Source: Corbicula japonica
Taxonomy: Eukaryota; Mollusca; Bivalvia; Venerida; Cyrenidae
DNA: 64,000 bases
Assembly: GCA_038501625.1 (NCBI GenBank)
Contig: JAZAYU010000718.1
Coordinates: forward strand, 108,230-172,229
Reading direction: 5' to 3'
The position numbers were made by a program, and so were the translations under genes. The notes beneath the pieces are model-generated. The model was not told the DNA's origin. It saw only the letters and a program-made list of their open reading frames with translations, and ran no database searches. Shown piece by piece: positions 6,991 to 56,235 of the stretch. Every line of letters begins with the position of its first letter. Within the stretch, counting starts at the first letter, position 1.

Positions 6991-6999
6991 AATTGGTGC

Positions 7000-18609: not shown

Positions 18610-20295
18610 AAAACCGAGGATCTTTTTTTTTTTTTTTTTTTTTTGAGGCCCCTTACGGGTAACCCCGTTTATTCACTTTCACTTGCATATACAATATTAC
18701 ATCAATACATATTTTCATAATTTCCAAAACTAATTAACATTCAAATAATATATAATTTGTTTTTTTGATTTAACTGTGTTAACAGCATATACAAAATGTT
18801 AATATTGCAAGCTAAGCGATTTTGTTGTGGAGTCTCCCTATTAGGTAAAGTCTTGTAAAAATATATGTTTAGATAATTACACGTGATTACAAAAGGAAAT
18901 AAAAAAAAATGAAGAAAAAGGGAATAGTTTGGTCATTTCCAGTGTACGAGGAAAAAAAAAAGATTAGATGTAGAAGGACCATTTCATTTGGTGCTTTTCA
19001 AGTTTGTTTTTCAAGAAAGCTACTTCTTTTTCTAATTCTATTCTATAGTTCAAAAATGAAATAAAATGTTCGAAGTTTGGAACACTTTTCTTAATTTTCA
19101 TTTTAAAAATATAATACTTGCATGCAATTATAATATAGTTTATGCTGTTGTCTTTTATTGTTTGGTTCATAATACCTAAACTAATATTTTCCAGATTAAA
19201 AGATACTGGTGTTCCTTTTGTATTTAATAGAGACTGTAATTGTGACCATAAATGTTGGCTATAGGGACAGTTCCAAAACAGGTGCTCATTTGTTTCAATA
19301 TGAGTGTTACAAAAATCACATGATTGCGACATAGTAAGATTACATTTATAAAGGTACTTATTTGTGGGTATTATTCTACGTAAATATTTGTACTGAAAAT
19401 TTCTGAATACCGTATCAATACTTGATATAAATATGTTGGAGTAAACTTTTTCCCAATTAATATTTTTATTGTGTAAAATGGTTTCCCATTTATTTTCAGA
19501 TTTCACTGGTTCAATTTGTTTATTTTTGAGTAGAATATCATAAAACAGTTTATTTGGAGTTTTAGATGTATTTAGTTTTTCGAGTAGGTAATTTTTTCTC
19601 AAGCTCGTTAAAGTGGTCTGGTCTAACGTTTTAACATAATAAAGTGGAATACTTTTTATTATCTTGTGGTATTCTAGAAATTCTTTGTTTTCTAAATTGA
19701 ACAAAAACTTGGCTTCATTAAATGTATAAAACTGCTTTTTACGAAAATCATAAAAGTGTTCTATAAATTTTATACCCTTATTATACATGTTTTTGTTGAA
19801 AATTATACCAAAATCATTTTTTATTTCTGAATTATTCCACAATATATGTTTTTCTATATTCTTATTAGTTTTATTACAGCTGACCGAAATTTCGCGCCAT
19901 GCTGTTATAATGTTAGCCAGAAATATATTTTTTTTGAACATTAGTTTTATGTCTTTTGCATTCAAATTACATTCAAAAATAAGATTTCCTCCATATTTAT
20001 TTAGAACATTTGAGTAGAAATTTTTCCACTGCCCTTTGTTTTCTTCATTAAATAATCGTTTTACCCAGCATGCCTTTATTGAAGTTAATAAACATTTTAT
20101 ATCTGTAACTTTTAAACCACCATTTTCATATTTTTTTACAATTTCTTTTCGTTTAATTTTATCTGGTTTTCCATCCCACAAGAATGTAAATAATGCTTGA
20201 TTTATCTCTGAAATAATCTTTTCTGTCGGATTGTCTAGCACCGTAAAGGGATATATGAGTTTTGGTAATGCGAATGTTTTAAAAACCGAGGATCT
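18610..20295 (-). mobile_element. 5'-truncated LINE insertion with poly-A tail and 14-bp target duplication
   Basis: Identical AAAACCGAGGATCT occurs at 18610-18623 and 20282-20295. Between them, reading the minus strand, an ORF starts at the truncation point (20281), stops at 18964, and is followed by a 3' UTR and a terminal poly-A (poly-T on plus, 18624-18644). Perfect duplications and an intact ORF suggest a recent, target-primed insertion. It lies in the intron between module exons 14 and 15. Confidence 0.92.
18964..20280 (-). CDS. LINE ORF2 C-terminal part (post-RT region with zinc-knuckle)
   Basis: Over 430 uninterrupted codons that begin mid-protein at the truncation point (LPKLIYPFTVLDNPTEKIIS). 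FTFLWDGKPDKIKRKEIVKK and ENGGLKVTDIKCLLTSIKAC are typical of the region after the RT domain in L1/Tx1-type LINEs. Near the end lies a CCHC-type knuckle, CDFCNTHIETNEHLFWNC (zf-RVT-like). The endonuclease and RT core are missing because of 5' truncation, so it is not autonomous. The clade call (L1/Tx1-like) is from memory of the motif order. Confidence 0.82.
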   Translation of the reverse strand, partial: KTFALPKLIYPFTVLDNPTEKIISEINQALFTFLWDGKPDKIKRKEIVKKYENGGLKVTDIKCLLTSIKACWVKRLFNEENKGQWKNFYSNVLNKYGGNLIFECNLNAKDIKLMFKKNIFLANIITAWREISVSCNKTNKNIEKHILWNNSEIKNDFGIIFNKNMYNKGIKFIEHFYDFRKKQFYTFNEAKFLFNLENKEFLEYHKIIKSIPLYYVKTLDQTTLTSLRKNYLLEKLNTSKTPNKLFYDILLKNKQIEPVKSENKWETILHNKNINWEKVYSNIFISSIDTVFRNFQYKYLRRIIPTNKYLYKCNLTMSQSCDFCNTHIETNEHLFWNCPYSQHLWSQLQSLLNTKGTPVSFNLENISLGIMNQTIKDNSINYIIIACKYYIFKMKIKKSVPNFEHFISFLNYRIELEKEVAFLKNKLEKHQMKWSFYI

Positions 20296-20349
20296 AGAAA
20301 ACTTCTACAGACTGCATTATGGCTTTTGTCATTACCCATATACTTATTG

Positions 20350-20446: not shown

Positions 20447-21008
20447 TCACCAAAAATTCCCTTATGATATTGCTAAAGTTGCCAGGCGCTTCGAACTCGA
20501 ATTATTCATTAAAGGTTTATTCATGTTAATTTAATTATGGTCTGTGTGATATAAAACAATTTAGATTTTTCCTAATAAAGAATTTATAAATTCCGTTTTC
20601 AACATCTCAACTCTTAAATATGTGAAATTGACGTTAACATGAAACAGTGTTTTCATTGTGACCGTTAAGGTTAGTCAGAGATTGGCACCGTCATACTGAT
20701 TATTGTTCTCGGTTAAACAGAACGTACTTCACTTCAGTGCAGTTATCAGTTTCAGTTACCTCCCTTGATGGAACAGTGTAATATATAAATTTAAACTATC
20801 CTATTAAACTATCCTTCATTGGGAATACTGATGGTATGTATTATGTCCGTCTTCTGCATTGTTGGCTAGGCGCTGCGGTGGTATTTTAGTACTTCTATGT
20901 ATATATGATATATATATATTGCTAAACTTGCATCAGTGTGTGCTTTTTCATTGGTTTGCAATTTTTCTTCATTATTTCCTTTAATATTTTTATATTTTAT
21001 AAACTTAC

Positions 21009-21140
21009 ATTTGATGCACTTGTCGCCTAAAGGACTTGATCCGTATTTACATTCGCACCTCCCTTTAATGCATTCAGCATTGCTGTCTAATGCACACTCA
21101 TCGCCATCTCGTCCCTTACATCGCCCGCCGTATGATTCAT
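21009..21140 (-). CDS. Exon 14: EB/EGF-like Cys module 7
   Basis: 132 bp, donor GTAAGT, phase 1-1. ESYGGRCKGRDGDEC begins a full six-Cys module (ECIKGRCECKYG...DKC). The next intron (16313-21008) holds a recent LINE insertion, a reverse-transcriptase pseudogene and several SINE-like pieces. Confidence 0.85.
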
Positions 21141-21943
21141 CTGAAATAGTTCAGTGATAATATGAATTTGAAGAAATTCATTAAAATGCCAGCATCGGAA
21201 AAGAAATCACTCTAGAAAAAAACATTCTTATAAATCTTTGATCTGGCACTGAAATAAATCCTATATGTAAACAAAGATGATTTAAATTTTATGACTCTAT
21301 TTGTACGTCCGTGTGTATTTAAACTCGGCCCATATTGAGAGGGGTTCCACTAGCTGCTGGTTTGACTATTCTGCGTTTGTGCTTGGTCACCATTCAAAAT
21401 GGATTGCTCCGTTAGCATAAAATTAGCAACTTTAGGCTTCGGTATAAAAGTCATTTGTGGTCCCATTTTCAAAATTCTTTTACTGATGTGCAGCGGATAT
21501 GCAGAGCAGAAGATTATCTAAATTCCTGGAAATCCCCTTTGATCAAAAGTCCATAAAGACATAGCGGAACAGGATTTTAAATTTGTGTTTGCGTGCGGCA
21601 TGACGATTAAGATTAATATGTAGAGTAAGATGGTTGAGATTAGGGTTAGTTTTTTAAAGATTAGGAGCGGGAACATATTAAAGTGTTATGTTTAAGCCTT
21701 TATAAAATCATCACCCCTTTATTTCAAGTTTTCGGACGCATGTCTTTTATCAAGAAAAAAAAACAGAATTAGGATGAAACTTTTATCATAGTGTTTGTCT
21801 TGATTGAGGACAAGAGTCTGAATATTTGAAAATTAAGAGTGATAATTTTATAAAGTGTTATAACTGGCTTCCATTTTGGAAGAAAAGGAGTATTTAAAAG
21901 TTTTCTAAGCGGACAGGTTCTAAAAGTGTGTCTGAATTCTTAC

Positions 21944-33616: not shown

Positions 33617-34035
33617 CTGAAAACAAGAAAGAATTTAAATAAACCCGATGTCAGTGTGCGACCATAGTCATTATCTGGGGACAAGATGTTTAGACGGCCA
33701 AGGGAGAGCACTTTCCCTGTAAACGAGGGCTCACGCGTTCCAATACTTGTCTGGTGCACATCTTTTCACACCCTGTGACACGTAAATGAGTGCAATCTGA
33801 TTAAAATAATATCCTGAAAACCGCTACGCTATCAGGATCTGACGACGAGCAGCTAAAACGTGCTTTTATCACAAACCTTTTTCAACCAACCAGATTGTCG
33901 CCTACAAAATCGCGAAAGTGAAAGTAAACATTCTATATTAAACCATGAAAAGTGTTGAGAGCCTGCGTAAGATATATTTTGCTGAATTCCTTTGTGTTTA
34001 TGTAGTATTGCAATTATTTCTAATGTAATAACATC

Positions 34036-37000
34036 ATATGTGTGAAGTTGGCAATGCAATCGTAGATCGCCGTTCGACATTCAATGCATAGCTGTGCAAT
34101 CGACATACAGCTCTGCATTGGCAGACTATCCGCCAATGTACAGCTGTGAGATCGACATTCAGCTCTGCATTCAATGTTTAGCTCTGGGTTGGTCATTCAG
34201 CTCGGCATTCAAAAAGGTAAGTCACTCAATGTTTAGCTGTGGGTTCGACATTCAGCTATGCATTCGCCAATGTACAGCTCTGAGTTCGACATTCAGCTCT
34301 GCATTCAAAACGGGAGGTCCCTCAATGTTTAGCTGTGGGTTGGACATTCAGATCTGCATTCGCCAATGTACAGCTGTGGGTTCGACATTCAGCTATGCAT
34401 TCGCCAATGTAGAGCTGTGGGTTCGACATTCAGCTCTGCATTCAAAACAGGAGTTAACTCAATGTTTAGCTGTGGGTTGGACATTCAGATCTGCATTCGC
34501 CAATGTACAGCTGTGGGTTCGACATTCAGCTATGCATTCGCCAATGTAGAGCTGTGGGTTCGACATTCAGCTCTGCATTCAAAACAGGAGTTAACTCAAT
34601 GTTTAGCTGTGGGTTGGACATTCAGATCTGCATTCACTAATGTACAGCTGTGAGTTCGACATTCAGCTCTGCATTCAAAACGGGAGGTCCCTCAATGTTT
34701 AGCTGTGGGTTGGACATTCAGATCTGCATTCGCCAATGTACAGCTGTGGGTTCGACATTCAGCTATGCATTCGCCAATGTAGAGCTGTGGGTTCGACATT
34801 CAGCTCTGCATTCAAAACAGGAGTTAACTCAATGTTTAGCTGTGGGTTGGACATTCAGATCTGCATTCGCCAATGTACAGCTGTTGGTTCGGCATTCAGC
34901 TATGCATTCGCCAATGTAGAGCTGTGGGTTCGACATTTAGCTCTGCATTCAAAACAGGAGTTAACTCAATGTTTAGCTGTGGGTTGGACATTCAGATCTG
35001 CATTCACTAATGTACAGCTGTGAGTTCGACATTCAGCTCTGCATTCAAAACGGGAGGTATCTCAATGTTTAGCTGTGGGTTGGACATTCAGATCTGCATT
35101 CACAAATGTACAGCTGTGAGTTCGACATTCAGCTATGCATTCGCCAATGTAGAGCTGTGAGTTCGACATTCAGCTATGCATTCGCCAATGTACAGCTGTG
35201 AGTTCGACATTGAGCTCGGCATTCAAAAAGGTAAGTGCCTCAATGTTTAGCTGTGGGTTCGACATTCAGCTCTGCATTCGCCAATGTACAGCTCTGAGTT
35301 CGACATTCAGCTCTGCATTCAAAACGGGAGGTCCCCCAATGTTTAGCTTTGGTTTGGACGTTCAGATCTGCATTCGCCAATGTACAGCTGTGGGTTCGAC
35401 ATTCAGCTATGCATTCGCCAATGTAGAGCTGTAAGTTCGACATTCAACTCTGCATTCAAAACAGGATTTCCCTCAATGTTTAGCTGTGGGTTGGACATTC
35501 AGATCTGCATTCACCAATGTACAGCTGTGGGTTCGTCATTCAGCTCTGCATTCAAAACGGGAGGTATCTCAATGTTTAGCTGTGGGTTGGACATTCAGAT
35601 CTGCATTCACCAATGTACAGCTGTGAGTTCGACATTCAGCTATGCATTCGCCAATGTGGAGCTGTGAGTTCGACATTCAGCTATGCATTCGCCAATGTAC
35701 AGCTGTGAGTTCGACATTGAGCTCGGCATTCAAAAAGGTAAGTCCCTCAATGTTTAGCTGTGGGTTCGACATTCAGCTATGCATACGCCAATGTGCAGCT
35801 CTGAGTTCGACATTCAGCTCTGCATTCAAAACGGTAGGTCCCTCAATGTTTAGCTGTGGGTTGGACATTCAGATCTGCATTCGCCAATGTACAGCTGTGG
35901 GTTCGACATTCAGCTATGCATTCGCCAATGTAGAGCTGTGAGTTCGACATTCAGCTCTGCATTCAAAACAGGAGTTCCCTCAATGCTTAGCTGTTCGTTG
36001 GACATTCAGATCTGCATTCACCAATGTACAGCTGTGGGTTTGACATTCAGCTCTGCATTCAAAACGGGAGGTATCTCAATGTTTAGCTGTGGGTTGGACA
36101 TTCAGATCTGCATTCGCCAATGTACAGCTGTGGGTTGGACATTCAGCTATGCATTCGCCAATGTAGAGCTGTGAGTTCGACATTCAGCTCTGCATTCAAA
36201 ACAGGAGTTCCCTCAAAGCTTAGCTGTTCGTTGGACATTCAGATCTGCATTCACCAATGTACAGCTGTGGGTTCGTCATTCAGCTCTGCATTCAAAACGG
36301 GAGGTATCTCAATGTTTAGCTGTGGGTTGGACATTCAGATCTGCATTCACCAATGTACAGCTGTGAGTTCGACATTCAGCTATGCATTCGCCAATGTAGA
36401 GCTGTGAGTTCGACATTCAGCTATGCATTCGCCAATGTACAGCTGTGAGTTCGACATTGAGCTCGGCATTCAAAAAGGTAAGTCCCTCAATGTTTAGCTG
36501 TGGGTTCGACATTCAGCTATGCATTCGCCAATGTGCAGCTCTGAGTTCGACATTCAGCTCTGCATTCAAAACGGGAGGTCCCTCAATGTTTAGCTGTGGG
36601 TTGGACATTCAGATCTGCATTCGCCAATGTACAGCTGTGGGTTCGACATTCAGCTATGCATTCGCCAATGTAGAGCTGTGAGTTAGACATTCAGCTCTGC
36701 ATTCAAAACAGGAGTTCCCTCAATGCTTAGCTGTTCGTTGGACATTCAGATCTGCATTCACCAATGTACAGCTGTGGGTTAGTCATTCAGCTCTGCATTA
36801 ATAACGGGAGGTATCTCAATGTTTAGCTGTGGGTTGGACATTCAGATCTGCATTCACCAATGTACAGCTGTGAGTTCGACATTCAGCTATGCATTCGCCA
36901 ATGTAGAGCTGTGAGTTCGACATTCAGCTATGCATTCGCCAATGTACAGCTGTGAGTTCGACATTGAGCTCGGCATTCAAAAAGGTAAGTGCCTCAATGT

Positions 37001-39163
37001 TTAGCTGTGGGTTCGACATTCAGCTATGCATTCGCCAATGTACAGCTCTGAGTTCGACATCCAGCTATGCATTCGCCAATGTACAGCTGTGAGTTCGACA
37101 TTGAGCTCGGCATTCAAAAAGGTAAGTCCCTCAATGTTTAGCTGTGGGTTCGACATTCAGCTATGCATTCGCCAATGTACAGCTCTGAGTTCGACATTCA
37201 GCTCTGCATTCAAAACGGGAGGTCCCTCAATGTTTAGCTGTGGGTTGGACATTCAGATCTGCTTTCGCCAATGTACAGCTGTGGGTTCGACATTCAGCTA
37301 TGCATTCGCCAATGTAGAGCTGTGGGTTCGACATTCAGCTCTGCATTCAAAACAGGAGTTAACTCAATGTTTACTGTGGGTGGGACATTCAGATCTGCAT
37401 TCACTAATGTACAGCTGTGAGTTCGACATTCAGCTCTGCATTCAAAACGGGAGGTATCTCAATGTTTAGCTGTGGGTTGGACATTCAGATCTGCATTCAC
37501 CAATGTACAGCTGTGAGTTCGACATTCAGCTATGCATTCGCCAATGTAGAGCTGTGAGTTCGGCATTCAGCTATGCATTCGCCAATGTACTGCTGTGAGT
37601 CCGACATTGAGCTCGGCATTCAAAAAGGTAAGTCCCTCAATGTTTAGCTGTGGGTTCGACATTCAGCTATGCATTCGCCAATGTGCAGCTCTGAGTTCGA
37701 CATTCAGCTCTGCATTCAAAACGGGAGGTCCCTCAATGTTTAGCTGTGGGTTGGACATTCAGATCTGCATTCGCCAACGTACAGCTGTGGGTTCGACATT
37801 CAGCTATGCATTCGCCAATGTAGAGCTGTGAGTTCGACATTCAGCTCTGCATTCAAAACAGGAGTTCCCTCAATGCTTAGCTGTTCGTTGGACATTCAGA
37901 TCTGCATTCACCAATGTACAGCTGTGGGTTCGTCATTCAGCTCTGCATTCATAACAGGAGGTATCTCAATGTTTAGCTGTGGGTTGGACATTCAGATCTG
38001 CATTAACCAATGTACAGCTGTGAGTTCGACATTCAGCTATGCATTCGCCAATGTAGAGCTGTGAGTTCGACATTCAGCTATGCATTCGCCAATGTACAGC
38101 TGTGAGTTCGACATTGAGCTCGGCATTCAAAAAGGTAAGTGCCTCAATGTTTAGCTGTGGGTTCGACATTCAGCTATGCATTCGCCAATGTACAGCTCTG
38201 AGTTCGACATTCAGCTATGCATTCGCCAATGTACAGCTGTGAGTTCGACATTAAGCTCGGCATTCAAAAAGGTAAGTCCCTCAATGTTTAGCTGTGGGTC
38301 CGACATTCAGCTATGCATTCGCCAATGTACAGCTCTGAGTTCGACATTCAGCTCTGCATTCAAAACGGGAGGTCCCTCAATGTTTAGCTGTGGGTTGGAC
38401 ATTCAGATCTGCATTCGCCAATGTACAGCTGTGGGTTCGACATTCAGCTATGCATTCGCCAATGTAGAGCTGTGAGTTCGACATTCAACTCTGCATTCGA
38501 AACAGGATTTCCCTCAATGTTTAGCTGTGGGTTGGACATTCAGATCTGCATTCACCAATGTACAGCTGTGGGTTCGTCATTCAGCTCTGCATTCAAAACG
38601 GGAGGTATCTCAATGTTTAGCTGTGGGTTGGACATTCAGATATGCATTCACCAATGTACAGCTGTGAGTTCGACATTCAGCTATGCATTCGCCAATGTAG
38701 AGCTGTGAGTTCGACATTCAGCTATGCATTCGCCAATGTACAGCTGTGAGTTCGACATTGAGCTCGGCATTCAAAAAGGTAAGTCCCTCAATGTTTAGCT
38801 GTGGGTTCGACATTCAGCTATGCATTCGCCAATGTGCAGCTCTGAGTTCGACATTCAGCTCTGCATTCAAAACGGTAGGTCCCTCAATGTTTAGCTGTGG
38901 GTTGGACATTCAGATCTGCATTCGCCAATGTACAGCTGTGGGTTCGACATTCAGCTATGCATTCGCCAATGTAGAGCTGTGAGTTCGACATTCAGCTCTG
39001 CACTCAAAACAGGAGTTCCCTCAATGCTTAGCTGTTCGTTGGACATTCAGATCTGCATTCACCAATGTACAGCTGTGGGTTCGTCATTCAGCTCTGCATT
39101 CAAAACGGGAGGTATCTCAATGTTTAGCTGTGGGTTGGACATTCAGATCTGCATTCACCAAGT
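34036..39163 (+). repeat. Left arm: higher-order tandem repeat, 507-bp period
   Basis: Built from two related monomers, 41 bp (CATTCAGCTATGCATTCGCC + AATGTACAGCTGTGAGTTCGA) and 55 bp (CATTCAGCTCTGCATTCAAA + ..GGGAGGTCCCTCAATG.. + TTAGCTGTGGGTTGGA). One full period, for example from about 38755, has seven 41-mers and four 55-mers = 507 bp. The AAAAAGGTAAGT-bearing 55-mer recurs at about 507-bp steps (35230, 35737, 36983, 37627 and others), with steps of 137, 233 or 740 where the array was rearranged. Repeated ORFs of 78-99 codons are a by-product: 41 + 55 = 96 keeps frame, 41 + 41 does not. Confidence 0.92.
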
Positions 39164-39540
39164 TTTACTGGGGAGAAGAATCTATGAAGAAATAACCTGC
39201 TTTTCGGAGGCCGTTGTCTGTTGAAAATCACGAGTATTTCGAGCTTTTGGTGAACCTTTTTGACATTCACTGTTAGATCAGACCCTAAACAGCTGTCACG
39301 TTGGAACCCGCCGTATTGTAGGAAAAACATTCTCTCGAACGTGGATAGGGTCTGGAGCCGTTCCTGACCATTATTCAATTATATACATAGAAATCTATTT
39401 TTAGAGTACGATTTTGACGGTATATTTTCGAATATTGATAGAATGGACTAATATTAGTTACTTGACACCATTTTTGCAAAAGGGCGTATTAGTAAGGGTT
39501 GGCTGTGTCTGGGGAGGCTGGTCAAACGACAGTGGAAGAT
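39164..39540. other. Loop sequence next to left arm, nothing recognised
   Basis: Begins AGTTTTACTGGGGAGAAGAA right after the last monomer. No ORF, tandem structure or known motif stands out. Confidence 0.5.
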
Positions 39541-40640
39541 GACAGAAATGTTTTTAATAATTTTAATATATGCATTCAACAGCAAAAATATTTTACTAAT
39601 AACAATATGTTTTTGTCAGAAGAAAAAACATTTATTAATTGTGAAATATAATCATTCAATAGTTTTGATATATTATTTTACAGTTAAAAAAATGTTCTTT
39701 AAATTATTTGTGAGGAAGGTTTTTCTTTCGTTGACTTCAAAATAATATCAGCGGCGGCCCCATGCAAGTCATGGCCGATTGAAAGGGATCTGGTTTTAGC
39801 CAAAAACAACCCCCCCCCCCAAAAAAAAAAAAAACAACAACAAAAAAACAACAACACATAGATCGTTATGTCGAAATATTTTATCTACTCGTGACAATAT
39901 TTGAGAAAGTGTGCACAGCAGCCATGAATCCATTGGTATTTATTTACATGGTGGCTATACCACGTGACTTTGTGGATGTCGTGCACACACAAAATCACTC
40001 GCTTCAGGTATGCTTTTTGCTTATTTCTCAGTAGTTTCTGGAGCAAATAAAGAGCATCGTACTCCTGTTAAAAAGCATTTTCATCAACATTTCACCTCCA
40101 TTATTAATCAGCCACCGTTTTCTCAAACATTCAAAGACAAATTTTGATTGAAAGTCTGAATTTCTCATTCAATGTATGAGAAAAAGGCAGCTGATCGATA
40201 AGGGATATTAAATGTCCATGAAAATGCTATTTAATAGAAGTACGGTGCTCTTTATCTGATCGAATTCGCTCCAGAAATTACTGAGAAATATGCCAAAGCC
40301 TACCTGAAGCGAGTGATTTTGTGTGTGCACGATATCCAAAAAGTCACCTGGTATAGCCACCATGGTTAAGGTGACTTGTTTTTAGGATAACCGCATACTG
40401 TACCTCACTGCGCCACACCTACACAAGTAAAAACGCAATTTTTCTATGAGGCAATTCATTTAACAATTTATTTTAAAGGATACAATAAAAAAGTGAATCT
40501 ATTGAATGATTATATTTAACAATGAATAAATAGTTTTGCGGAAAAATAAACAGATATTTGTGTTTAGAATACTTAATTGTGTTATTGAATAAATATATTG
40601 AAATAATTGAGAAAAAAATTGAGTGATGATTTGGTGGTTT
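39540..40640. mobile_element. Palindromic element in the foldback loop
   Basis: A strong inverted pair at 39947-40140 and 40160-40366: CATGGTGGCTATACCACGTG mirrors CACCTGGTATAGCCACCATG, and CACAAAATCACTCGCTTCAG mirrors its complement. A second diverged inverted pair outside it (about 39630-39690 ATATAATCATTCAATAG.. and about 40495-40560 CTATTGAATGATTATAT) suggests nesting or a larger palindrome. No coding capacity. Confidence 0.75.
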
Positions 40641-41041
40641 TAAATAAATAATTTTACACGAAGTTATTGTTTGCTAATAAGTACGCAACTCTTTTTGACA
40701 CAATATATGTTTGGGATAAAATGAATTATGTTAATGAAAAATATTTTGACTCATTGAATATACACTTGTCAAAGTTTCTTAGTGCACACTTTTCAATGTT
40801 GGATATCTCAAAGTAAAAATATAATTGAAAGAAAGTTTCACATTATGTTAAATATGAACAAACAATAATAATTATTTGAAAACCGTGCATTTGTTTTACA
40901 TTTTACGTCATCAACGTTGGCATACGCTATTTATGCATTATGACCCTTTTGCAATCGAAATGAATTTTTTAACAGCCGATTTGGTTATCCACATGTTCAT
41001 CGACACCGATAATCTTAAAAATAACACCAACATTTAATACT

Positions 41042-41193
41042 ATGGAACGTTTCACGACTGAAGACCTAGCAATTCAAAATGCTCTACACTGGAACAACTT
41101 TAAATTTGTTATAAAACATCCTAAGGTTAATTTTCGTAAATGCAAAAGAAATGCTTATTTTTTTTGCATATGTTATCATTATACGAAAAATTA
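41042..41193 (+). CDS. Small ORF in the foldback loop, unknown
   Basis: ATG-initiated ORF of about 49 codons starting MERFTTEDLAIQNALHWNNF and ending in a short Cys/Tyr/His tail. The first 35 residues are less biased than the surrounding AT-rich sequence. It could be a remnant first exon of an element-encoded protein, or chance. No family recognised. Confidence 0.2.
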
Positions 41194-42192
41194 AAATGAT
41201 TTTTTTTCTAAATGAATAACGTTGCTTGCGTTGAACGTGGACGTTACTCTCCTACGTCATTAAATATTTACGTAAACAAACGTGAAAACGAAAATTTTAA
41301 TAATTGCATTTGTATGACGTGGCTCACTTATTAAACCACTCAAACTTAAATTAAAAATTAATTTTTAGAACAACAACAACAACAAAATATATTCGCACTA
41401 AAGCAAAAACATTGATTCTGGTATATATACAACATAATTCGTTCGCATTATCATGTAGTTTTATAATCACACGATATGAGTAATGTAATGATTATTTAAA
41501 CTGGAAAAGGAATTCTTAAAAGATAAACTTTAAAGATAAGCAGATATACTTGTAAACTTATACACGTGAAAACTTGATATAAATGAGTTATTAGTTAAAA
41601 TGCAGGAGGGAGGATCAATTTTTGAAATAAAATTGAAAAAGCAATAAGTAAGTCTCTATCTGACTGCGTAATCTGAAAGCTTTGTATATGTATTTTCCTA
41701 AATTTAAATGAATTTTCGCATTTCTTTTTTTTCATTAATGAGTCGAATTTATTTAAATTTGGCCAACTTGAGTAATATGGTTTTAAAAGCTGCTTTCGTA
41801 AATCTTTATACATAGGGCATATTAACGAAAAGTGGTATTCATTTTCAATAAAATTCATATTGCATAATTGACATTTTCTTTCATGTTGTGTAATATTAAA
41901 GTAACGTCCTCTTTCTATTTATATATAGAGAATGTGATAAAAGTCTAAATCTACTTAATGCTCTTCTGTACTTTTTATGTAATCTGATCGAGGTATGGTT
42001 CTAGTTCAAATGAATGTTTAAAGCGACAGTATGTTATTAATCTTCTTGAATTACTTATTTCACCGTACCGAGATTGATAATAAATATCAAGTATTCTTTG
42101 TTTTATTATGTTGAACGGAATATCGCACGTTTCTTGATTTATCCATACGTTTGAAAGTCCGAGCTGTTGCAACATGGTTTTTATTTGGTGAG

Positions 42193-44197
42193 TACGGAAG
42201 CGTTTTTAGGCCTCGTCTTATTGTATTCAATTTTAACGAAAACGTACAAAATAAGTCGACGTTGTATCCGTAAGCATTAAAAAGAAATCGACTTAGTTTT
42301 CTTCATGGACGAGGAAGTCGACTTTAAAATCGCAAAATAAGTTGTATTAAGCGACTTTGTGCATTACCCCATTTTTCTATCTGTGTTAAGTCGTTGTAAA
42401 TATATTGACTTTGTGTTGCAGCGTTCCAGAAACTCGAATTATTAAGTACGACTAAAATGTTTCATTTAAGAAACGTGATGATAAGTCTTGATTGTATAAA
42501 GTACTTCTATGGAGTGTCAACTGAATATATTCGCCAGTAGGCAAGAACGTAGTACGTAAGAGTGTAGCACTGGATCGACTACAGTAAATAATAAATACAG
42601 GACGTAGGACTAGATCTAGTTTATGAATGTACTAGATAGGTTGAAAGTACGAGAAAAGATAGACAATACGACGAAAAATCTACCCTATGCTCAGTCATAG
42701 ATCATATGCTCAATATTCGCCTTACACAGTACAAAGAATACTATACTGTAGTACAAGTAAATTTTTACAATTCGTGAGTTAATATAAACAATGAAGACTC
42801 TTTCCATAATATTTAATTTTGTTACCTTATTTCTTTGTAAAATAACCAAATTAGTGTTTAAAAAGTCTTTCAATATTCGATTTACTTTCACCTTTCACCT
42901 GTTCTCAACCAGACCAAAGAGCATATTATAAGCTTTAAAGAAAGGTTACCAACACGATATTCTACAGCGATCTTCATACATGATGATATACCCATCTACA
43001 GTTGATTGCTTAAATCTTTCGTTAAACGACGGTTGCAGTAGTTACAGAGTTTATGATGGTTTATGGGAAAATCTTGTAAAAGAACCTGGAAGTTTGATCT
43101 GTTTTTTTTTTAAATTTCTGTCATTGTGTTCTTGCTGGTTTGACTCCAGGGGCTCTGATCTCAATAAGGCCACTGAGTTCCGCTCTTTTGCCTTACAACG
43201 TTATTAGCTTCTAATGTTTTATATGTTTCTGTGCTTTTGCATGCAACATTGTCGAGTGGATGAGTGGGTAGAGGTTTTTCGCCAAGACAACTTGTACTTG
43301 TTTGTTTGTATGAGAACCTTTTTGGACAAGTGTGAGCTTGGTACATTCTAGAACCTGGTTTAAACCCCCCAGAGACAAATTGTTTCGCCACTGACCGATC
43401 CAAGGTGGTAACCCTTTATCGTTACTTGTTCGAGGTGTCTAATTTAAAATTGATTCTGTTATAAGCTGATGCTCTCTTTGTCCCCTTTACTTGTTGGCTT
43501 CTGTCTGTTTTTTTCTGGTTGTGACAAAACTTTTAATAGTTAAGATATCATATAATAGATTAAGATAATAAAAACGTATATGAATATTTTATTGATTCCG
43601 GAAAATGTGTCGATATGTTAAATAATAAAATAGTTAAACTTCCAACTGCTAGGTATAGATTTCAGCAGAAAAGGGCTGGCGTACTAACATGACGACCTTT
43701 ATTAATTAATTCTCATACTTTCAACCTATCTCATTAATTCGTAAAGTCGATACAGTCCTTCATGTCCCTATAATTATTTCCTACATTCGATCCAGTACTA
43801 CGTCCTACGTTCGCTTCTACAGTCGGTCTAATCATAATTTTTACGTTCTACGCTCGTGTCTACTGGCGAATATATTCAATAGAATCATCAAAGAAGTTGT
43901 TTGCACGATCACGATTTATCATTGTGTTTCTGCAATAAAACGTAATTAATAAAACGACTTTCTGGAAAGCTGGATCACAAAGTCAATATATTTACAACGA
44001 CTGAACGAAGATGTCACGATGACAAAATGCAAAGTCGCTTAATACAAGCCAATTTTGTAATTGAAAAGTCGACTTTTTTGTCCATGATGAACAGAAAGTC
44101 GAGATCTTTTTAACGTGTACAAATACAACGTCGACTTATTTTGTACGTTCTCTTAAAAAATGAAGACATCAAGACGAGGCCTTAAAACGCTTCCGTA
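42193..44197. mobile_element. TIR DNA transposon A (non-autonomous, about 2.0 kb)
   Basis: Ends TACGGAAGCGTTTTTAGGCC and (right) GGCCTTAAAACGCTTCCGTA are inverted repeats. Inverted similarity runs inwards for at least 350 bp (GAATATATTCGCCAGTAG at about 42523 versus CTACTGGCGAATATATTC at about 43860). Direct GGTGAG at 42187-42192 and 44198-44203 gives a 6-bp target duplication. No transposase ORF. It contains a SINE-like copy at about 43120-43430. Confidence 0.82.
43120..43430 (-). repeat. Dispersed SINE-like repeat, copy inside transposon A
   Basis: Reverse-complement counterpart of 17130-17450: AGACAACTTGTACTTG, TGTGAGCTTGGTACATTCTA, GAACCTGGTTTAAAC and GTTTCGCCACTGACCG occur in inverted order and orientation. 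Confidence 0.55.
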
Positions 44198-44258
44198 GGT
44201 GAGCCCAGTTTTGATTGTTGTAAGAATAAGTATTGTCGGCATCGTTTTTAAGCATTAT

Positions 44259-45806
44259 TACGAAAGCGTTTTTAGGCCTGGTCTTGTTCATTTCCTTTTA
44301 ATAGAAAACGTACAAAATATGTCAACATTGTATCCGTACACGCTGAAAATAAGTCAACTTTCCTTTTATCTTGTATTACAAAAATGTCTTCTAAAACACA
44401 AAAGTCAGCATTTTTTGAGCGACGTTATGGGTTTCGTAATCGCGACAGATTTTACGTCTGCGTCCAGTTATTGTAAATATGGTGGCTTTGTGTTGAACCT
44501 CTCCAGAATGTCGTTTCATTTAATACGACCAAATCCGCTAGCCGGATTTATATTTAAGCAATATGATTATCATGATTGTGCAACGTATATATGTAGTGCG
44601 GTGGCAGTGGTTTAAAATAAATAAAAAGGAAACTTAGATTGTATGAAGATTTAATGTAAATCTTGTTATAGAACTTAGAGGCTCGATCTTTTTCTTTTGT
44701 ACATGTCATGTTAAGGCTGTGTAGGGAGGCTGTATCTACTGTTGCCGTTCCTGACATGTATCTTTCAATCTTTTTTCCATTATATCCCTTATTTTAAACA
44801 TAAAAAGGTGAGATAAGTTATATATCACTCAGTTTTATCAGGTGCGGAACACTGGCAACAGTTATACTGTCACTGGCGATATGATAGATTGTTTGCCTAT
44901 CTTTTGTCTGGCCTCGGCCAAATCCCGATTTCTGCATCACGTGCCAGTAAAATGCATGTAACCTTTAAAGGCCGTAACGCATGTATTCATACGACAGTTC
45001 GGTGGGCATATTACGGACATAGAATTGCTTACAATGTGTTATGAAAACTTCACATAGGTTAGGCTTAATCACAACCTCTCGGCCGATTTCCGAGGCTCTA
45101 CGATCAAGACCTATATACTCCGGCGAAAGTGTTCCTATAGTTTCTGTGGGACTGAAACTTTTTTATAATTTTGAAACAACAGAAACATTATTACAGCTAT
45201 TTCACAGTTTATATTTCGACAGGTTCATAAATTATGCCGCATACGTTTATCTTTAAGGAGTTAACTAAAGGTTTTGTTGTAGTGCGGTGGGATGAATAAA
45301 ATGTTCGCCGGCTTCCTTGCGAGATCTGATCCAGAGGCTCGAAGATACTAGAATATTAAACTAATAGTTTCGATTGGTGAAGTCTATGTTTTTCCAACAG
45401 ACCTACGTCTAACGGTCATTTCTTCAGTCGGTCCAGTCATATGTTCTACCATACTGCAGTCGACCCAGACCTACGACCTTTCTGTTGTATACTCGGTTCA
45501 GACCTATTGTCATTTAATCTACGTTCAGCGGAAACTCCACATTAAAATGCTTCTGTTAAAATATACGAGTTTAAACTTCATTTCAACATATTTACAATGA
45601 CTAAACGATAGAGGGACTTTTGCGAGTTTCAAAACCAGAAATTCGCCACAAACAAACTGACTTTTGCGTTTAAAATGTCGAAGTTATCGTCATTGAAGAA
45701 AAGAAAGTCGATTTATTTTCAGCGTATACGGATACAAAAGCGACTTATTTGTACGTTTTATACCAAAAGGAAAACAACAAGACGAGGCCAAAACAACGCT
45801 TCCCTA
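44259..45806. mobile_element. TIR DNA transposon B, relative of A (about 1.55 kb)
   Basis: Ends TACGAAAGCGTTTTTAGGCC and (right) GGCCAAAACAACGCTTCCCTA are diverged inverted repeats of the same family as A. Flanks CATTAT (44253-44258) and AATTAT (45807-45812) are a 6-bp duplication with one mismatch. The 138-codon ORF crossing its left end reads TIR sequence and is not a gene. No transposase recognised. Confidence 0.75.
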
Positions 45807-46552
45807 AATTATATAAATACTTTAAACTTTTTATTGTCAAGATTTAGAAATTTTATCCAATATCGAATCATATGTATTTTTCTTATGATGATTAAAGGTA
45901 CCCTTCCTAGTTCTCCGTATAATGCTGAGAGATTTGTAGGCTTATTAACAAATAAAACGTTTCTTAAAAATTTTGTGTGGACTATTTCAGTATCTTTTCC
46001 TTCATTTAAACCCCATACATACGATGAATAATTAAGAACAGATGAGACTAAGATATCAAATAGTTTACATTTCTCTGTGATATTAAATTCGTAATTGTTA
46101 AAAACGGAAAAAATCTATACATAGCTTTTGAAGCGTGTTCAGCTATGCATTTTAAAATGTCTTACAAATATATAAATGCTGGCACTTTAATGCAAAATTG
46201 TTACGATTCAAAACGCAAAAAGATTTGAAAAAATAAAACTGATTGATCTAAAATGTAACGTTTTATTATTTGTTACTTTAAATTTGAAAACATAAGTTCT
46301 TATTAATAGGACCACCGGGTGAAACTGTTTTAAATTAAGTGGTTAGTTTTTTTAGCATCTTCTTTTAAAACTCGACGTATCGGAAGAATAACTTCAGCAT
46401 CAATAAATAGTGCAAAACAAGAACGCGGCGATTTGTGTAAAACGGGAATCTGAGCTGTCTTCTGTGAGTGTAGAAAATCCTCATTTGCATTTTTCATTTT
46501 TCAACATTTTATACAAGAAGAATAACCAGAATATCGTATATTGGAGAATGGC

Positions 46553-49500
46553 ATAGCTGTACATTGCTGAATGCAGGGGTAAGTGTCCAACGCATGGCAA
46601 AACATTGAAGAATTTTAACATGTCTTTAAATACCAAAGTAACATTGAAGAACTAAACTTTTTGAAAGCCGATCTAAATGTCGAACCCACTGATAAAGATT
46701 GAGGGACCTCCCGTTTTCAATGCAGAGCTGCATGTCGAACTCACAGCTGTACATTGGCGAATGCATAGCTGAATGTCGAACCCACAGCTGTACATTGGCG
46801 AATGCAGATCTGAATGTCCAACCCACAGCTAAACATTGAGGGACCTCCCGTTTGGAATGCAGAGCTGAATGTCGAACTCAGAGCTGTACATTGGCGAATG
46901 CATAGCTGAATGTCGAACCCACAGCTGTACATTGGTGAATGCAGATGTGAATGTCCAACCCACAGCTAAACATTGAGATACCTCCCGTTTTGAATGCAGA
47001 GCTGAATGTCGAACCCACAGCTGTTCATTGGCGAATGCAGATCTGAATGTCCAACCTACAGCTTAACATTGAGGGACCTCCCGTTTTGAATGCAGAGCTG
47101 AATGTCGAACTCACAGCTGTACATTGGCGAATGCATAGCTGAATGTCGAACCCACAGCTAAACATTGAGGGACTTACCTTTTTGAATGCCGAGCTCAATG
47201 TCGAACTCACAGCTGTACATTGGCGAATGCATAGCTGAATGTCGAACTCACAGCTGTACATTGGCGAATGCATAGCTGAATGTCGAACCCACAGCTAAAC
47301 ATTGAGGGACTTACCTTTTTGAATGCCGAGCTCAATGTCGAACTCACAGCTGTACATTGGCGAATGCATAGCTGAATGTCGAACTCACAGCTCTACATTG
47401 GCGAATGCATAGCTGAATGTCGAACTCACAGCTGTACATTGGTGAATGCAGATCTGAATGTCCAACCCACAGCTAAACATCACAGCTAAACATTGAGATA
47501 CCTCCCGTTTTGAATGCAGAGCTGAATGTCGAACCCACAGCTGTACATTGGTGAATGCAGATCTGAATGTCCAACGAACAGCTAAGCATTGAGGGAACTC
47601 CTGTTTTGAATGCAGAGCTGAATGTCGAACTCACAGCTCTACATTGGCGAATGCATAGCTGAATGTCGAACCCACAGCTGTACATTGGCGAATGCAGATC
47701 TGAATGTCCAACCCACAGCTAAACATTGAGGGACCTCCCGTTTTGAATGCAGAGCTGAATGTCGAACTCAGAGCTGCACATTGGCGAATGCATAGCTGAA
47801 TGTCGAACCCACAGCTAAACATTGAGGGACTTACCTTTTTGAATGCCGAGCTCAATGTCGAACTCACAGCTGTACATTGGCGAATGCATAGCTGAATGTC
47901 GAACTCACAGCTCTACATTGGCGAATGCATGGCTGAATGTCGAACTCACAGCTGTACATTGGTGAATGCAGATCTGAATGTCCAACCCACAGCTAAACAT
48001 TAGGATACCTCCCGTTTTGAATGCAGAGCTGAATGACGAACCCACAGCTGTACATTGGTGAATGCAGATCTGAATGTCCAACCCACAGCTAAACATTGAG
48101 GGAACTCCTGTATTGAATGCAGAGTTGAATGTCGAACTCACAGCTCTACATTGGCGAATGCATAGCTGAATGTCGAACCCACAGCTGTACATTGGCGAAT
48201 GCAGACCTGAACGTCCAACCCACAGCTAAACATTGAGGGACCTCCCGTTTTGAATGCAGAGCTGAATGTCGAACCCAGAGCTGTACATTGGCGAATGCAG
48301 AGCTGAATGTCGAACCCACAGCTAAACATTGAGGGACTTACCTTTTTGAATGCCGAGCTCAATGTCGAACTCACAGCTGTACATTGGCGAATGCAGAGCT
48401 GAATGTCGAACTCACAGCTCTACATTGGCGAATGCATAGCTGAATGTCGAACCCACAGCTGTACATTGGCGAATGCAGATCTGAATGTCCAACCCACAGC
48501 TAAACATTGAGATACCTCCCGTTTTGAATGCAGAGCTGAATGTCGAACCCACAGCTGTACATTGGTGAATGCAGATCTGAATGTCCAACGAACAGCTAAG
48601 CATTGAGGGAACTCCTGTTTTGAATGCAGAGCTGAATGTCGAACTCACAGCTCTACATTGGCGAATGCATAGCTGAATGTCGAACCCACAGCTGTACATT
48701 GGCGAATGCAGATCTGAATGTCCAACCCACAGCTAAACATTGAGGGACCTACCGTTTTGAATGCAGAGCTGAATGTCGAACTCAGAGCTGCACATTGGCG
48801 AATGCATAGCTGAATGTCGAACCCACAGCTAAACATTGAGGGACTTACCTTTTTGAATGCCGAGCTCAATGTCGAACTCACAGCTGTACATTGGCGAATG
48901 CATAGCTGAATGTCGAACTCACAGCTCTACATTGGCGAATGCATGGCTGAATGTCGAACTCACAGCTGTACATTGGTGAATGCAGATCTGAATGTCCAAC
49001 CCACAGCTAAACATTAGATACCTCCCGTTTTGAATGCAGAGCTGAATGACGAACCCACAGCTGTACATTGGTGAATGCAGATCTGAATGTCCAACCCACA
49101 GCTAAACATTGAGGGAACTCCTGTATTGAATGCAGAGTTGAATGTCGAACTCACAGCTCTACATTGGCGAATGCATAGCTGAATGTCGAACCCACAGCTG
49201 TACATTGGCGAATGCAGACCTGAACGTCCAACCCACAGCTAAACATTGAGGGACCTCCCGTTTTGAATGCAGAGCTGAATGTCGAACTCAGAGCTGTACA
49301 TTGGCGAATGCAGAGCTGAATGTCGAACCCACAGCTAAACATTGAGGGACTTACCTTTTTGAATGCCGAGCTCAATGTCGAACTCACAGCTGTACATTGG
49401 CGAATGCATAGCTGAATGTCGAACTCACAGCTCTACATTGGCGAATGCATAGCTGAATGTCGAACTCACAGCTGTACATTGGTGAATGCAGATCTGAATG

Positions 49501-51796
49501 TCCAACCCACAGCTAAACATTGAGATACCTCCCGTTTTGAATGCAGAGCTGAATGACGAACCCACAGCTGTACATTGGTGAATGCAGATCTGAATGTCCA
49601 ACCCACAGCTAAACATTGAGGGAACTCCTGTTTTGAATGCAGAGCTGAATGTCGAACTCACAGCTCTACATTGGCGAATGCATAGCTGAATGTCGAACCC
49701 ACAGCTGTACATTGGCGAATGCAGATCTGAATGTCCAACCCACAGCTAAACATTGAGGGACCTCCCGTTTTGAATGCAGAGCTGAATGTCGAACTCAGAG
49801 CTGCACATTGGCGAATGCATAGCTGAATGTCGAACCCACAGCTAAACATTGAGGGACTTACCTTTTTGAATGCCGAGCTCAATGTCGAACTCACAGCTGT
49901 ACATTGGCGAATGCATAGCTGAATGTCGAACTCACAGCTCTACATTGGCGAATGCATAGCTGAATATCGAACTCACAGCTGTACATTGGTGAATGCAGAT
50001 CTGAATGTCCAACCCACAGCTAAACATTGAGATACCTCCCGTTTTGAATGCAGAGCTGAATGACGAACCCACAGCTGTACATTGGTGAATGCAGATCTGA
50101 ATGTCCAACGAACAGCTAAGCATTGAGGGAACTCCTGTTTTGAATGCAGAGCTGAATGTCGAACTCACAGCTCTACATTGGCGAATGCATAGCTGAATGT
50201 CCAACCCACAGCTGTACATTGGCGAATGCAGATCTGAATGTCCAACCCACAGCTAAACATTGAGATACCTCCCGTTTTGAATGCAGAGCTGAATGTCGAA
50301 CCCACAGCTGTACATTGGTGAATGCAGATCTGAATGTCCAACGAACAGCTAAGCATTGAGGGAACTCCTGTTTTGAATGCAGAGCTGAATGTCGAACTCA
50401 CAGCTCTACATTGGCGAATGCATAGCTGAATGTCGAACCCACAGCTGTACATTGGCGAATGCAGATCTGAATGTCCAACCCACAGCTAAACATTGAGGGA
50501 CCTACCGTTTTGAATGCAGAGCTGAATGTCGAACTCAGAGCTGCACATTGGCGTATGCATAGCTGAATGTCGAACCCACAGCTAAACATTGAGGGACTTA
50601 CCTTTTTGAATGCCGAGCTCAATGTCGAACTCACAGCTGTACATTGGCGAATGCATAGCTGAATGTCGAACTCACAGCTCCACATTGGCGAATGCATAGC
50701 TGAATGTCGAACTCACAGCTGTACATTGGTGAATGCAGATCTGAATGTCCAACCCACAGCTAAACATTGAGATACCTCCCGTTTTGAATGCAGAGCTGAA
50801 TGACGAACCCACAGCTGTACATTGGTGAATGCAGATCTGAATGTCCAACCCACAGCTAAACATTGAGGGAAATCCTGTTTTGAATGCAGAGTTGAATGTC
50901 GAACTCACAGCTCTACATTGGCGAATGCATAGCTGAATGTCCAACCCACAGCTGTACATTGGCGAATATAGATCTGAACGTCCAACCCACAGCTAAACAT
51001 TGGGGGACCTCCCGTTTTGAATGCAGAGCTGAATGTCGAACTCAGAGCTGCACATTGGCGAATGCAGAGCTGAATGTCGAACCCACAGCTAAACATTGAG
51101 GGACTTACCTTTTTGAATGCCGAGCTCAATGTCGAACTCACAGCTGTACATTGGCGAATGCATAGCTGAATGTCGAACTCACAGCTCTACATTGGCGAAT
51201 GCATAGCTGAATGTCGAACTCACAGCTGTACATTTGTGAATGCAGATCTGAATGTCCAACCCACAGCTAAACATTGAGATACCTCCCGTTTTGAATGCAG
51301 AGCTGAATGTCGAACTCACAGCTGTACATTGGTGAATGCAGATCTGAATGTCCAACCCACAGCTAAACATTGAGTTAACTCCTGTTTTGAATGCAGAGCT
51401 GAATGTCGAACCCACAGCTCTACATTGGCGAATGCATAGCTGAATGTCGAACCCACAGCTGTACATTGGCGAATGCAGATTTGAATGTCCAACCCACAGC
51501 TAAACATTGAGGGACCTCCCGTTTTGAATGCAGAGCTGAATGTCGAACTCAGAGCTGTACATTGGCGAATGCATAGCTGAATGTCGAACCCACAGCTAAA
51601 CATTGAGTGACTTACCTTTTTAAATGCCGAGCTGAATGACCAACCCAGAGCTAAACATTGAATGCAGAGCTGAATGTCGATCTCACAGCTGTACATTGGC
51701 GGATAGTCTGCCAATGCAGAGCTGTATGTCGATTGCACAGCTATGCATTGAATGTCGAACGGCGATCTACGATTGCATTGCCAACTTCACACATAT
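46553..51796 (-). repeat. Right arm: inverted copy of the 507-bp higher-order repeat
   Basis: Same monomers and 507-bp period as the left arm, reverse-complemented; equivalent units recur at 47631, 48138, 48645, 49151, 49658. The inner end (46553-46700) is degenerate (GAATGGCATAGCTGTACATT and other broken monomers). The outer end finishes with the cap CATTGCCAACTTCACACATAT at 51776-51796. Confidence 0.92.
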
Positions 51797-51805
51797 AATA
51801 ACATC

Positions 51806-53209: not shown

Positions 53210-53770
53210 TCAGAACACAATGTAATTATTAGCTAAACCAAAAAAAACGACGAAAAATGGCTAAACAACGAATCAAGCACGTCGTGAATGGCTGAACAAT
53301 AATGTTAATAACATATTAATTATGGCTTAACAAGAAAACAAATTATGGCTTAACAACGACAAAGCAGGCTGAAAAGTATGGCTAAACAACAAAATAAAAC
53401 GACGTAAATAATGGCTTAACAACAACCAAAACACGGTGTAAATTATTACTTAATAACAAAAGAAAAATGAAGTAGATTATGGCTAAGCATCGATGAAAAC
53501 ACGACGTAAATTTTGGCTAAACGGAGAAAACACGACGTAAATTTTGGCTAAACGGAGAAAACACGACGTAAATTTTGGCTAAACGGAGAAAACACGACGT
53601 AAATTTTGGCTAAACGGAGAAAACACGACGTAAATTTTGGCTAAACGGAGAAAACACAACGTAAATTTTGGCTAAACGGACAAAACCGCGACGTAAATTT
53701 TGGCTAAACGGACAAAACACGACGTAAATTTTGGCTAAACGGACAAAACCGCGACGTAAATTATGGTTTA
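53210..53770. repeat. Tandem repeat with 31-bp unit, in intron 3
   Basis: 53505-53765 has about eight near-identical 31-bp copies of TTTTGGCTAAACGGAGAAAA + CACGACGTAAA (late copies have GGACAAAAC). Upstream, 53210-53505, more diverged and irregular versions (ATGGCTTAACAAC..ACGACGTAAATT) suggest the older part of the array. Related degenerate units reappear at 54545-54850. Confidence 0.85.
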
Positions 53771-55568: not shown

Positions 55569-55685
55569 GATCTGCATTGATGGTACACGTGCACACACCG
55601 AACCATTTGTTGCAGGTCGAAAACCTCCCGCCATTGCCAGTTTGACATTCGGAATCCATCTGACATGTATATCCAATATCAATAC
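55569..55685 (-). CDS. Exon 2: N-terminal Cys-rich (EGF/EB-like) module
   Basis: Bounded by a TTTTAG acceptor and a GTAAGT donor, phase 1-1, 39 codons. It reads GIDIGYTCQMDSECQTGNGG..., with five cysteines and a C-T-C pair near the end (VCTCTINAD), the usual spacing of a small disulphide module. It follows directly on the leader, which fits an extracellular N-terminus. The 5' half of this exon together with its acceptor has been tandemly amplified about seven or eight times immediately upstream (55686-56235), so several alternative acceptors exist; this copy is the only one continuing to a donor. Confidence 0.7.
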
Positions 55686-56235
55686 CTAAAATAGAAAACC
55701 TCCCGCCATTGCCAGCTTGACATTCGGAATCCATCTGATATTTATATCCAATATTATTACCTAAAATAGAACACCCCGCCATTGCCAGCTTGACATTCGG
55801 AATCCATCTGACATTTATATCCAATATCAATACCTAAAATAGAAAACCCCCCGCCATTGCCAGCTTGACATTCGGAATCAATCTGACATGTATATCAAAT
55901 ATCAATACCTAAAATAGACCCCCCCCCGCCATTGCAATATCAATACCAAAATAGAAAACCTCCCGCCATTGCCAGCTTGACATTCAGAATCCATCTGACA
56001 TGTCAATCCAATATCAATACCAAAATAGAAAACCTCCCGCCATTGCCAGCTTGACATTCGGAATCCATCTGACATGCATATCCAATATCAATACCTAAAA
56101 TAGAAAACCTCCCGCCATTGCCAGTTTGACATTCGGAATCCATCTCCAATATCAATACCTAAAATAGAAACTCTCCCGCCATTTGCCAGCTTTACATTTA
56201 GAATTCATGTGACATTTATATCCAATATCAATAAT
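55686..56235 (-). repeat. 75-bp tandem repeat derived from the acceptor and 5' half of exon 2
   Basis: About seven or eight copies, some partial, of a unit that on the minus strand contains TATTTTAG|GTATTGATATTGGATAT then CAGATGGATTCCGAATGTCA and GGCAATGGCGGGAGG. It is a copy of the exon 2 splice acceptor plus about 60 coding bases. The regular unit is 75 bp (25 codons), so reading through adjacent copies keeps frame. Confidence 0.85.

What the first reader, a model, noticed from the sequence alone, without database searches (positions are those of the whole stretch)
34036..51796. 17.8-kb Foldback-like transposon with satellite-built arms and a 9-bp target duplication
Inverted arms of about 5.1-5.2 kb, matching unique caps (ATATGTGTGAAGTTGG...) and AATAACATC directly repeated outside both caps define a transposition unit. 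Tandem-repeat TIRs with 9-bp duplications are the hallmark of Drosophila FB elements; a mollusc version with a 507-bp higher-order period appears undescribed to me.
Basis: partly seen in the sequence, partly recalled or inferred. Interest (0 to 1): 0.9.

Follow-up and report, generated by a model that had tools for sequence, protein, structure and literature searches.

The report
Giant foldback transposon with satellite arms
This stretch is a real jumping DNA element, 17.8 thousand letters long, whose two mirror-image ends are built of thousands of letters of repeated satellite DNA; relatives sit at many other places in the same genome, and the enzyme that moves them was not found.

Summary
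The unit 34036-51796 has matching caps, inverted satellite arms of about 5.1-5.2 kb, and AATAACATC directly repeated outside both caps. The cap recurs across the host genome (1.07 Gb). All 13 convergent cap pairs whose flanks I read carry their own 9-bp duplication (10 perfect, 3 with one mismatch), all distinct. That excludes a misassembled palindrome. Copies differ in arm length and carry internal deletions; two deletion junctions each occur at two loci with different duplications, so broken copies moved after breaking. It is a multicopy, non-autonomous foldback-type transposon, moved in trans. A second, larger family has nearly the same end and 9-bp duplications (4 of 4 checked), but arms of a different, 65-bp satellite that shares a 29-bp core with the 41-bp satellite here. 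No transposase was recognised in what was read, and none of 56 MULE-domain hits lies inside a listed element, so Mutator membership is likely but unproven. The foldback kind is known (FB, Tm1, Tetris). The arm size and the different satellites between related families are the new parts.

The parts
34027..34035 (+). left 9-bp target-site duplication AATAACATC
   Evidence: 13 of 13 checked cap pairs of the family have their own 9-bp duplication
34036..34130 (+). left cap (terminal 95 bases; 40 cap-length matches plus 4 short ones in the genome)
34036..39161 (+). left arm: 41-bp modules and 55-bp modules (41 plus a 14-bp spacer), 507-bp higher-order period; 106 inward and 0 outward copies of the core CAGCTGTGAGTTSGRYATTC with up to 3 mismatches
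39162..46551 (.). loop, apparently non-coding; shared at about 90-99% with other copies in part; no transposase recognised
42193..44197 (.). inverted-repeat element within the loop (ends about 435 bp, 75% alike)
44258..45807 (.). second inverted-repeat element within the loop (ends about 230 bp, 72% alike), related to the first
41595..41918 (-). open frame that looks to me like the cysteine-rich tail of a non-LTR retrotransposon; no Pfam match
   Evidence: label by eye
45809..46114 (-). open frame that looks to me like part of a non-LTR retrotransposon; no Pfam match
   Evidence: label by eye
46552..51796 (-). right arm, inverted partner of the left arm; 107 inward and 0 outward core copies
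51702..51796 (-). right cap
51797..51805 (+). right 9-bp target-site duplication AATAACATC

Best explanation
A non-autonomous foldback-type DNA transposon. A transposase made elsewhere in the genome recognises the inverted ends, moves the whole unit, and leaves a 9-bp target duplication (shown: ends, duplications, many loci; inferred: the enzyme and the cut-and-paste step). The arms are satellite arrays that lengthen, shorten and rearrange separately on each side, probably by unequal exchange or replication slippage (shown: variable and unequal arms; inferred: the process). The loop is largely dispensable: deletion derivatives with only 1.4-1.6 kb of loop have themselves been copied to new places (shown by shared junctions). 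The most likely reason for tandem repeats at the ends is that each module carries a transposase-binding site, as demonstrated for Galileo (PMC3688188, abstract seen); this step is inferred. The 9-bp duplication and the foldback build make a Mutator-superfamily enzyme the likeliest mover (about 0.65).
For: Genome copies: 40 cap-length matches plus 4 short ones (40 of 55 first-look candidates scored), 28 of the 40 at 13 loci with convergent caps. 13 of 13 pairs checked have their own 9-bp duplication, 10 perfect. The 10 copies examined for arms (9 fetched plus the window's own) all have satellite arms around loops that share sequence. C27 and C73 share one internal deletion junction, and C143 and C2b share another, at different loci with different duplications. 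Youth: the 95-base cap is identical at 11 places, the window's two included; shared loop parts of C718, C27 and C2b are 98.8-99.6% alike. The core motif lies inward in every arm of the 10 copies (54-189 copies an arm), never outward and never in a loop, nor in the rest of the window. A sister family with nearly the same end, the same duplication length and a different satellite keeps a 29-bp core.
Against: No transposase recognised: among open frames of 130 aa or more in the 10 copies and C36 none looks like one to me (frames holding satellite peptide words were filtered out before I looked), and no convincing Pfam domain in the six-frame pieces scanned: 4.95 kb of the C230 loop, 9.85 kb of C8, 1.5 kb of a sister copy. 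No MULE hit lies in a listed element or within 50 kb of a listed sister end. Empty site not shown. The core is only slightly more conserved than the rest of its unit (0.907 against 0.875; 0.925 against 0.906), so selection on it is not shown. 12 of the 40 cap places have no partner in the list and were not resolved; one of them (C36) has a 10.9-kb arm with no matching loop within the 8.2 kb read beside it.
Confidence: 0.93

Rival explanations
1. A more specific reading of the same: it belongs to the Mutator (MULE) superfamily; an autonomous relative with a MULE transposase and the same ends exists or existed and drives both families.
For: 9-bp duplication in 17 of 17 pairs checked, 14 perfect. 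Foldback elements with 9-bp duplications and a MULE transposase are known: Tm1 (PMC3169594, abstract and Discussion part 1 seen). The genome has at least 56 MULE-domain hits, several in frames of 564-1079 aa.
Against: No MULE hit inside 13 A-family pairs or 28 listed sister pairs, or within 50 kb of a listed sister end (27 of 127 exact sister ends were not listed, and 150 of 166 MULE candidates were scored).
Confidence: 0.65
2. It is moved by a transposase of another superfamily, such as a P-type enzyme as in Galileo, with foldback arms evolved independently.
For: Galileo has internally repetitive long ends and a P-type transposase (PMC3573991, passages seen).
Against: Galileo makes 7-bp duplications (PMC3573991, passages); here 9 bases match and 7, 8 or 10 do not. 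Other superfamilies were not searched.
Confidence: 0.2
3. It is an inverted duplication of satellite DNA or a misassembled palindrome, not a transposon.
For: Arms are satellite arrays, which are hard to assemble.
Against: 13 loci on 12 contigs, distinct 9-bp duplications, precise common ends, shared loops and shared deletion junctions.
Confidence: 0.02
4. The satellite arose first and the transposon captured it, rather than the arms growing inside the transposon.
For: C36 holds a 10.9-kb array with one cap and no matching loop in the 8.2 kb read beside it.
Against: In the 10 copies examined the arrays start at the caps; the genome was not searched for arrays without caps.
Confidence: 0.15

Closest known systems
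Tm1, Mutator/Foldback family of root-knot nematodes (PMC3169594; abstract and part 1 of the Discussion seen)
   Same: Composite inverted ends with variable numbers of short tandem repeats, mostly 9-bp duplications, many non-autonomous copies.
   Different: Tm1 repeats are about 14 bp and a Tm1-A copy encodes a MULE-like transposase; here the units are 41/55 bp (65 bp in the sister family), arms in verified units reach 9.1 kb, and no transposase was found.
Tetris of Drosophila virilis (PMC4079207; abstract, sections 10 and 17 seen)
   Same: Foldback build, satellite-like repeats in the ends, 8-10 bp duplications, no transposase found, placed in Mutator by duplication length.
   Different: Ends up to 1,735 bp with 220-bp units and three structurally complete copies; here arms of 2.7-9.1 kb in verified units (10.9 kb at an unpaired end), a higher-order period, and 13 loci with verified duplications.
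Foldback (FB/NOF) elements of Drosophila (recalled; foldbacks of D. melanogaster are named in the Tetris paper)
   Same: Long inverted ends of tandem repeats around a loop; 9-bp duplications (recalled).
   Different: No sequence comparison was made; NOF-like coding sequence was not sought.
Galileo (PMC3573991 passages; PMC3688188 abstract)
   Same: Foldback-like ends that vary in length, partly by tandem repeats; binding sites of the transposase repeated in the ends.
   Different: 7-bp duplications, P-type transposase, ends up to about 1.26 kb.
Rehavkus (PMC6446971, passages seen)
   Same: 9-bp duplications and a minisatellite in the element.
   Different: Minisatellite sits before the 3' end only, inverted ends 26-400 bp, PHD-finger transposase.
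Helentron/pearl elements of bivalves (PMC7492417 search listing; PMC5139131 and PMC11136912 passages)
   Same: Mobile elements of molluscs that carry satellite-like arrays.
   Different: Their arrays are central, with subterminal inverted repeats; here the arrays are the inverted arms themselves.

Membership tests
Foldback transposons (structural class) | long inverted ends made of tandem repeats | tested here: met
   10 of 10 copies examined
Foldback transposons (structural class) | variable loop and variable arm length among copies | tested here: met
Foldback transposons (structural class) | dispersed copies, each with its own target-site duplication | tested here: met
   13 of 13 pairs checked; 12 unpaired caps not tested
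Mutator superfamily | duplication of mostly 9 bp (8-11 in the passages of PMC6446971) | tested here: met
Mutator superfamily | MULE transposase in an autonomous member | tested here: inconclusive
   none recognised in what was read or in listed pairs; not every end was listed and not every loop was read or scanned
Drosophila FB/NOF family proper | sequence relation of ends or NOF gene | not tested
   no FB sequence was at hand
Rehavkus | short inverted ends (26-400 bp) with a minisatellite at one end only | tested here: not met
   inverted arms are kilobases long and repetitive on both sides
Rehavkus | PHD-finger transposase | tested here: inconclusive
   no transposase recognised; only parts of the loops were scanned
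Galileo / P superfamily | 7-bp duplication | tested here: not met
   7-base frames mismatch at 2 or more places while 9-base frames match with 0 or 1 mismatch in the 11 combinations (9 loci) tabulated
Helentron / pearl | satellite array in the centre, subterminal inverted repeats (passages of PMC11136912) | tested here: not met
   arrays form the inverted arms, with a target-site duplication outside them

The most novel reading that the evidence does not exclude
The arms are giant arrays of transposase-binding sites in which only a short core is kept. Two families in one genome have almost the same end and duplication, yet their arms are built of different satellites (41 and 65 bp) that share just a 29-bp core. 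If one transposase serves both, transposons of this group replace the satellite around a fixed binding motif, and so act as generators of new satellite families.
Probability: 0.4. Interest if true: 0.72.

Novelty: new variant of a known kind. Interest (0 to 1): 0.55.

Why it matters
Foldback ends with tandem repeats have been linked to the birth of satellite DNA (Tetris) and to transposase binding (Galileo), but the longest ends stated in the passages I read are about 1.7 kb. Here arms of up to 9.1 kb were read in units with verified duplications (10.9 kb at one unpaired end), with higher-order repeats like those of large satellites. Two families with related ends and different satellites in one genome allow a direct test of whether a binding motif drives satellite growth and turnover.

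Tried and rejected
Misassembled palindrome: rejected by 13 loci with distinct duplications. Left and right arms of a copy kept alike by exchange within the copy: not supported on balance. Outer 250 bases are 0.948-0.996 alike within 10 copies and 0.927-0.996, mean 0.968, in 180 pairings between copies; the highest-scoring arm is in another copy for 17 of 20 arms (scores depend on length); but in 3 of 10 copies (C718, C423, C2a) the longest exact match is with the own partner. Loop inversion: loops occur in both orientations, but with symmetric ends this only reflects insertion in either direction, so nothing is claimed. The cap as a copy of the core motif: similar by eye, but 13-50% of shuffles score as well. 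Core under stronger constraint than the rest of its unit: not shown. The 9.6-10 kb sister pairs as autonomous copies: the middle 1.5 kb of one (C47) is mostly satellite with a short spacer, no gene seen (the weak Pfam lines there, such as DUF1685 at E 0.00028, are not believed). C8 (35 kb) as the autonomous copy: 9.85 kb of its interior has no believable domain and holds the end of a nested sister element. No Rfam family in the window. LINE-like frames in the loop: no Pfam match even at E 5, and no good match to the LINE relatives. Empty sites: three attempts not answered. Searches for the loop, the C11 sister end, a Merlin-type transposase family (label recalled) and the remaining sister ends did not complete either.
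Full report
Observation. The window lies in contig C718 of a 1,069,688,145-base assembly with 1,630 contigs. The arms are arrays of a 41-bp module and a 55-bp module (41 plus a 14-bp spacer); spacings of 96, 137 and 178 bases are 55 + n x 41, and 507 = 96+178+96+137 (the sums are mine). The 507 period comes first in 7 of 20 arms of the 10 copies. The loop 39162-46551 has no frame that I recognise as a transposase. It holds two inverted-repeat elements and two frames that look LINE-like to me but have no Pfam match.

Multicopy proof. The 95-base cap has 40 cap-length matches and 4 short ones (40 of 55 first-look candidates scored). Thirteen convergent pairs were checked at the flanks: C718, C326, C143, C27, two on C2, C423, C73, C230, C1, C1077, C66 and C8. 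Each has a 9-base duplication, 10 perfect and 3 with one mismatch (C143, C66, C8). In C230 the duplication fits once the element's end is set four bases further out, where the 22-base end has two mismatches. With four sister pairs, 17 own pairs match in 8-9 of 9 bases, while 272 crossed pairs average 2.73 and reach 7 at most. C66 and C1077 each have one extra cap with the same flank, and their interiors were not read. Twelve further cap places have no partner in that list and were not resolved, apart from a partial look at C36.

Anatomy across copies. Ten copies (nine fetched plus the window's own), 6,963-22,527 bp long, all have satellite arms. Some arms are interrupted: C143 and C2a carry insertions in one arm, and C73 has a small stretch of array in the other direction near its right end. 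Arms are unequal within a copy, for example 8.6 and 3.7 kb in C326. The longest uninterrupted arm in a verified unit is 9.1 kb (C423); the unpaired cap at C36 has 10.9 kb. The 35-kb unit at C8 was only partly read. Shared loop parts are about 90-99% alike. C27 and C73 share one deletion junction (loop positions 234/6013 of C718), and C143 and C2b join the arm at the same loop base. Because these pairs sit at different loci with different duplications, deleted copies have themselves been copied.

Arms within and between copies. The outer 250 bases are 0.948-0.996 alike within copies and 0.927-0.996 between copies, mean 0.968. For 17 of 20 arms the highest-scoring arm is in another copy, while in 3 of 10 copies the longest exact match is with the own partner. 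Arms therefore do not evolve as closed pairs, though some exchange within a copy is not excluded.

A sister family. Allowing three mismatches in the 22-base end gives 105 forward and 119 reverse matches against 2 and 3 for the reversed control (the first 100 places listed). Many read AGGTGTGTGAAGTTGGCAATGA; exact, there are 57 and 70, control 0. Among the first 100 listed of these 127, 28 convergent neighbours lie 1.0-19.4 kb apart (ends with mismatches were left out). Four of four pairs checked have perfect 9-bp duplications. The 2,392-bp copy at C11 has arms of a 65-bp unit, 6 and 14 copies; it is the only sister copy read whole. The 41- and 65-bp units share a 29-base core, with 24 of 28 aligned bases identical; none of 2,000 dinucleotide shuffles scores as high (17 against at most 14). 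C8 contains an arm and end of a nested sister element; a match of the C47 sister spacer to the C8 interior at 84% may belong to such nested DNA.

Mechanism. The core (up to three mismatches) occurs 106 and 107 times in the two arms here, and 54-189 times in each arm of the 10 copies, inward in every case, with none outward and none in a loop; none lies in the rest of the window. Repeated transposase-binding sites in such ends were shown for Galileo (PMC3688188, abstract seen). I infer the same here, but within-family conservation does not single out the core, so the inference rests on what the two families share. The mover is unknown. MULE domains exist in the genome (56 hits, 150 of 166 candidates scored), but none lies inside 13 A-family pairs or 28 sister pairs, or within 50 kb of a listed sister end. 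Other transposase families were not searched.

Comparison. Foldback elements with 9-bp duplications are known: Tm1 (PMC3169594, abstract and part 1 of the Discussion), Tetris with 8-10 bp (PMC4079207, abstract and sections 10 and 17), and the FB elements of Drosophila (recalled). The longest ends stated in what I read are 1,735 bp (Tetris), about 1.26 kb (Galileo, PMC3573991 passages) and 1,193 bp (arthropod MULEs, PMC13359780 passages). For bivalves, a term search within PMC10294476 found MULEs and no 'foldback', and the mollusc satellite papers seen tie arrays to Helentron/pearl elements (PMC5139131, PMC11136912 passages; PMC7492417 listing). The rows listed by seven literature searches (top rows only where more papers matched) showed no mollusc foldback family; subscription papers and Repbase were not searched. 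The host's phylum rests on one named relative, Dreissena, 37%.

Verdict. The transposon reading holds. It is a new variant of a known kind, apparently non-autonomous in every copy read, with unusually long satellite arms and a sister family that points to satellite turnover around a shared core.

Noticed in passing
window 6004-9924 (-): Gypsy-type retrotransposon fragments: RT_RNaseH domains and a zinc knuckle (Pfam), in broken frames; the Gypsy label is by eye.
   Followed up: partly
window 18964-20304 (-): 446-aa frame with a reverse-transcriptase zinc-binding domain; closest unnamed relative 79% identical, one relative named from Dreissena polymorpha.
   Followed up: partly
window 55619-56233: Tandem array of a 74/75-bp unit outside the element.
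   Followed up: no
window 53340-53770: Tandem array of a 31-bp unit outside the element.
   Followed up: no
window 3360-4261 and 11174-12488: Direct repeats of about 507 and 400 bp, 95-97% identical; perhaps copies of one mobile element.
   Followed up: no
G000 C1077:30255 and 47254 (L025, L024): Two left caps 17 kb apart with the same flank and the same 9-bp duplication: a local duplication or an assembly repeat.
   Followed up: no
G000 C66:2370559 and 2373013 (L021, L020): Two right caps 2,454 bases apart with the same flank, apparently a tandem duplication through the arm end.
   Followed up: no
G000 C2:5261498-5283943, element positions 20791-21789 (L043): 333-aa reverse-transcriptase-like frame (Penelope-like by eye) inserted in the right arm.
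   Followed up: no
G000 C36:6044217-6055074 (L049-L050): 10.9-kb array ending in one cap, with no matching loop or second arm within the 8.2 kb read beside it.
   Followed up: partly
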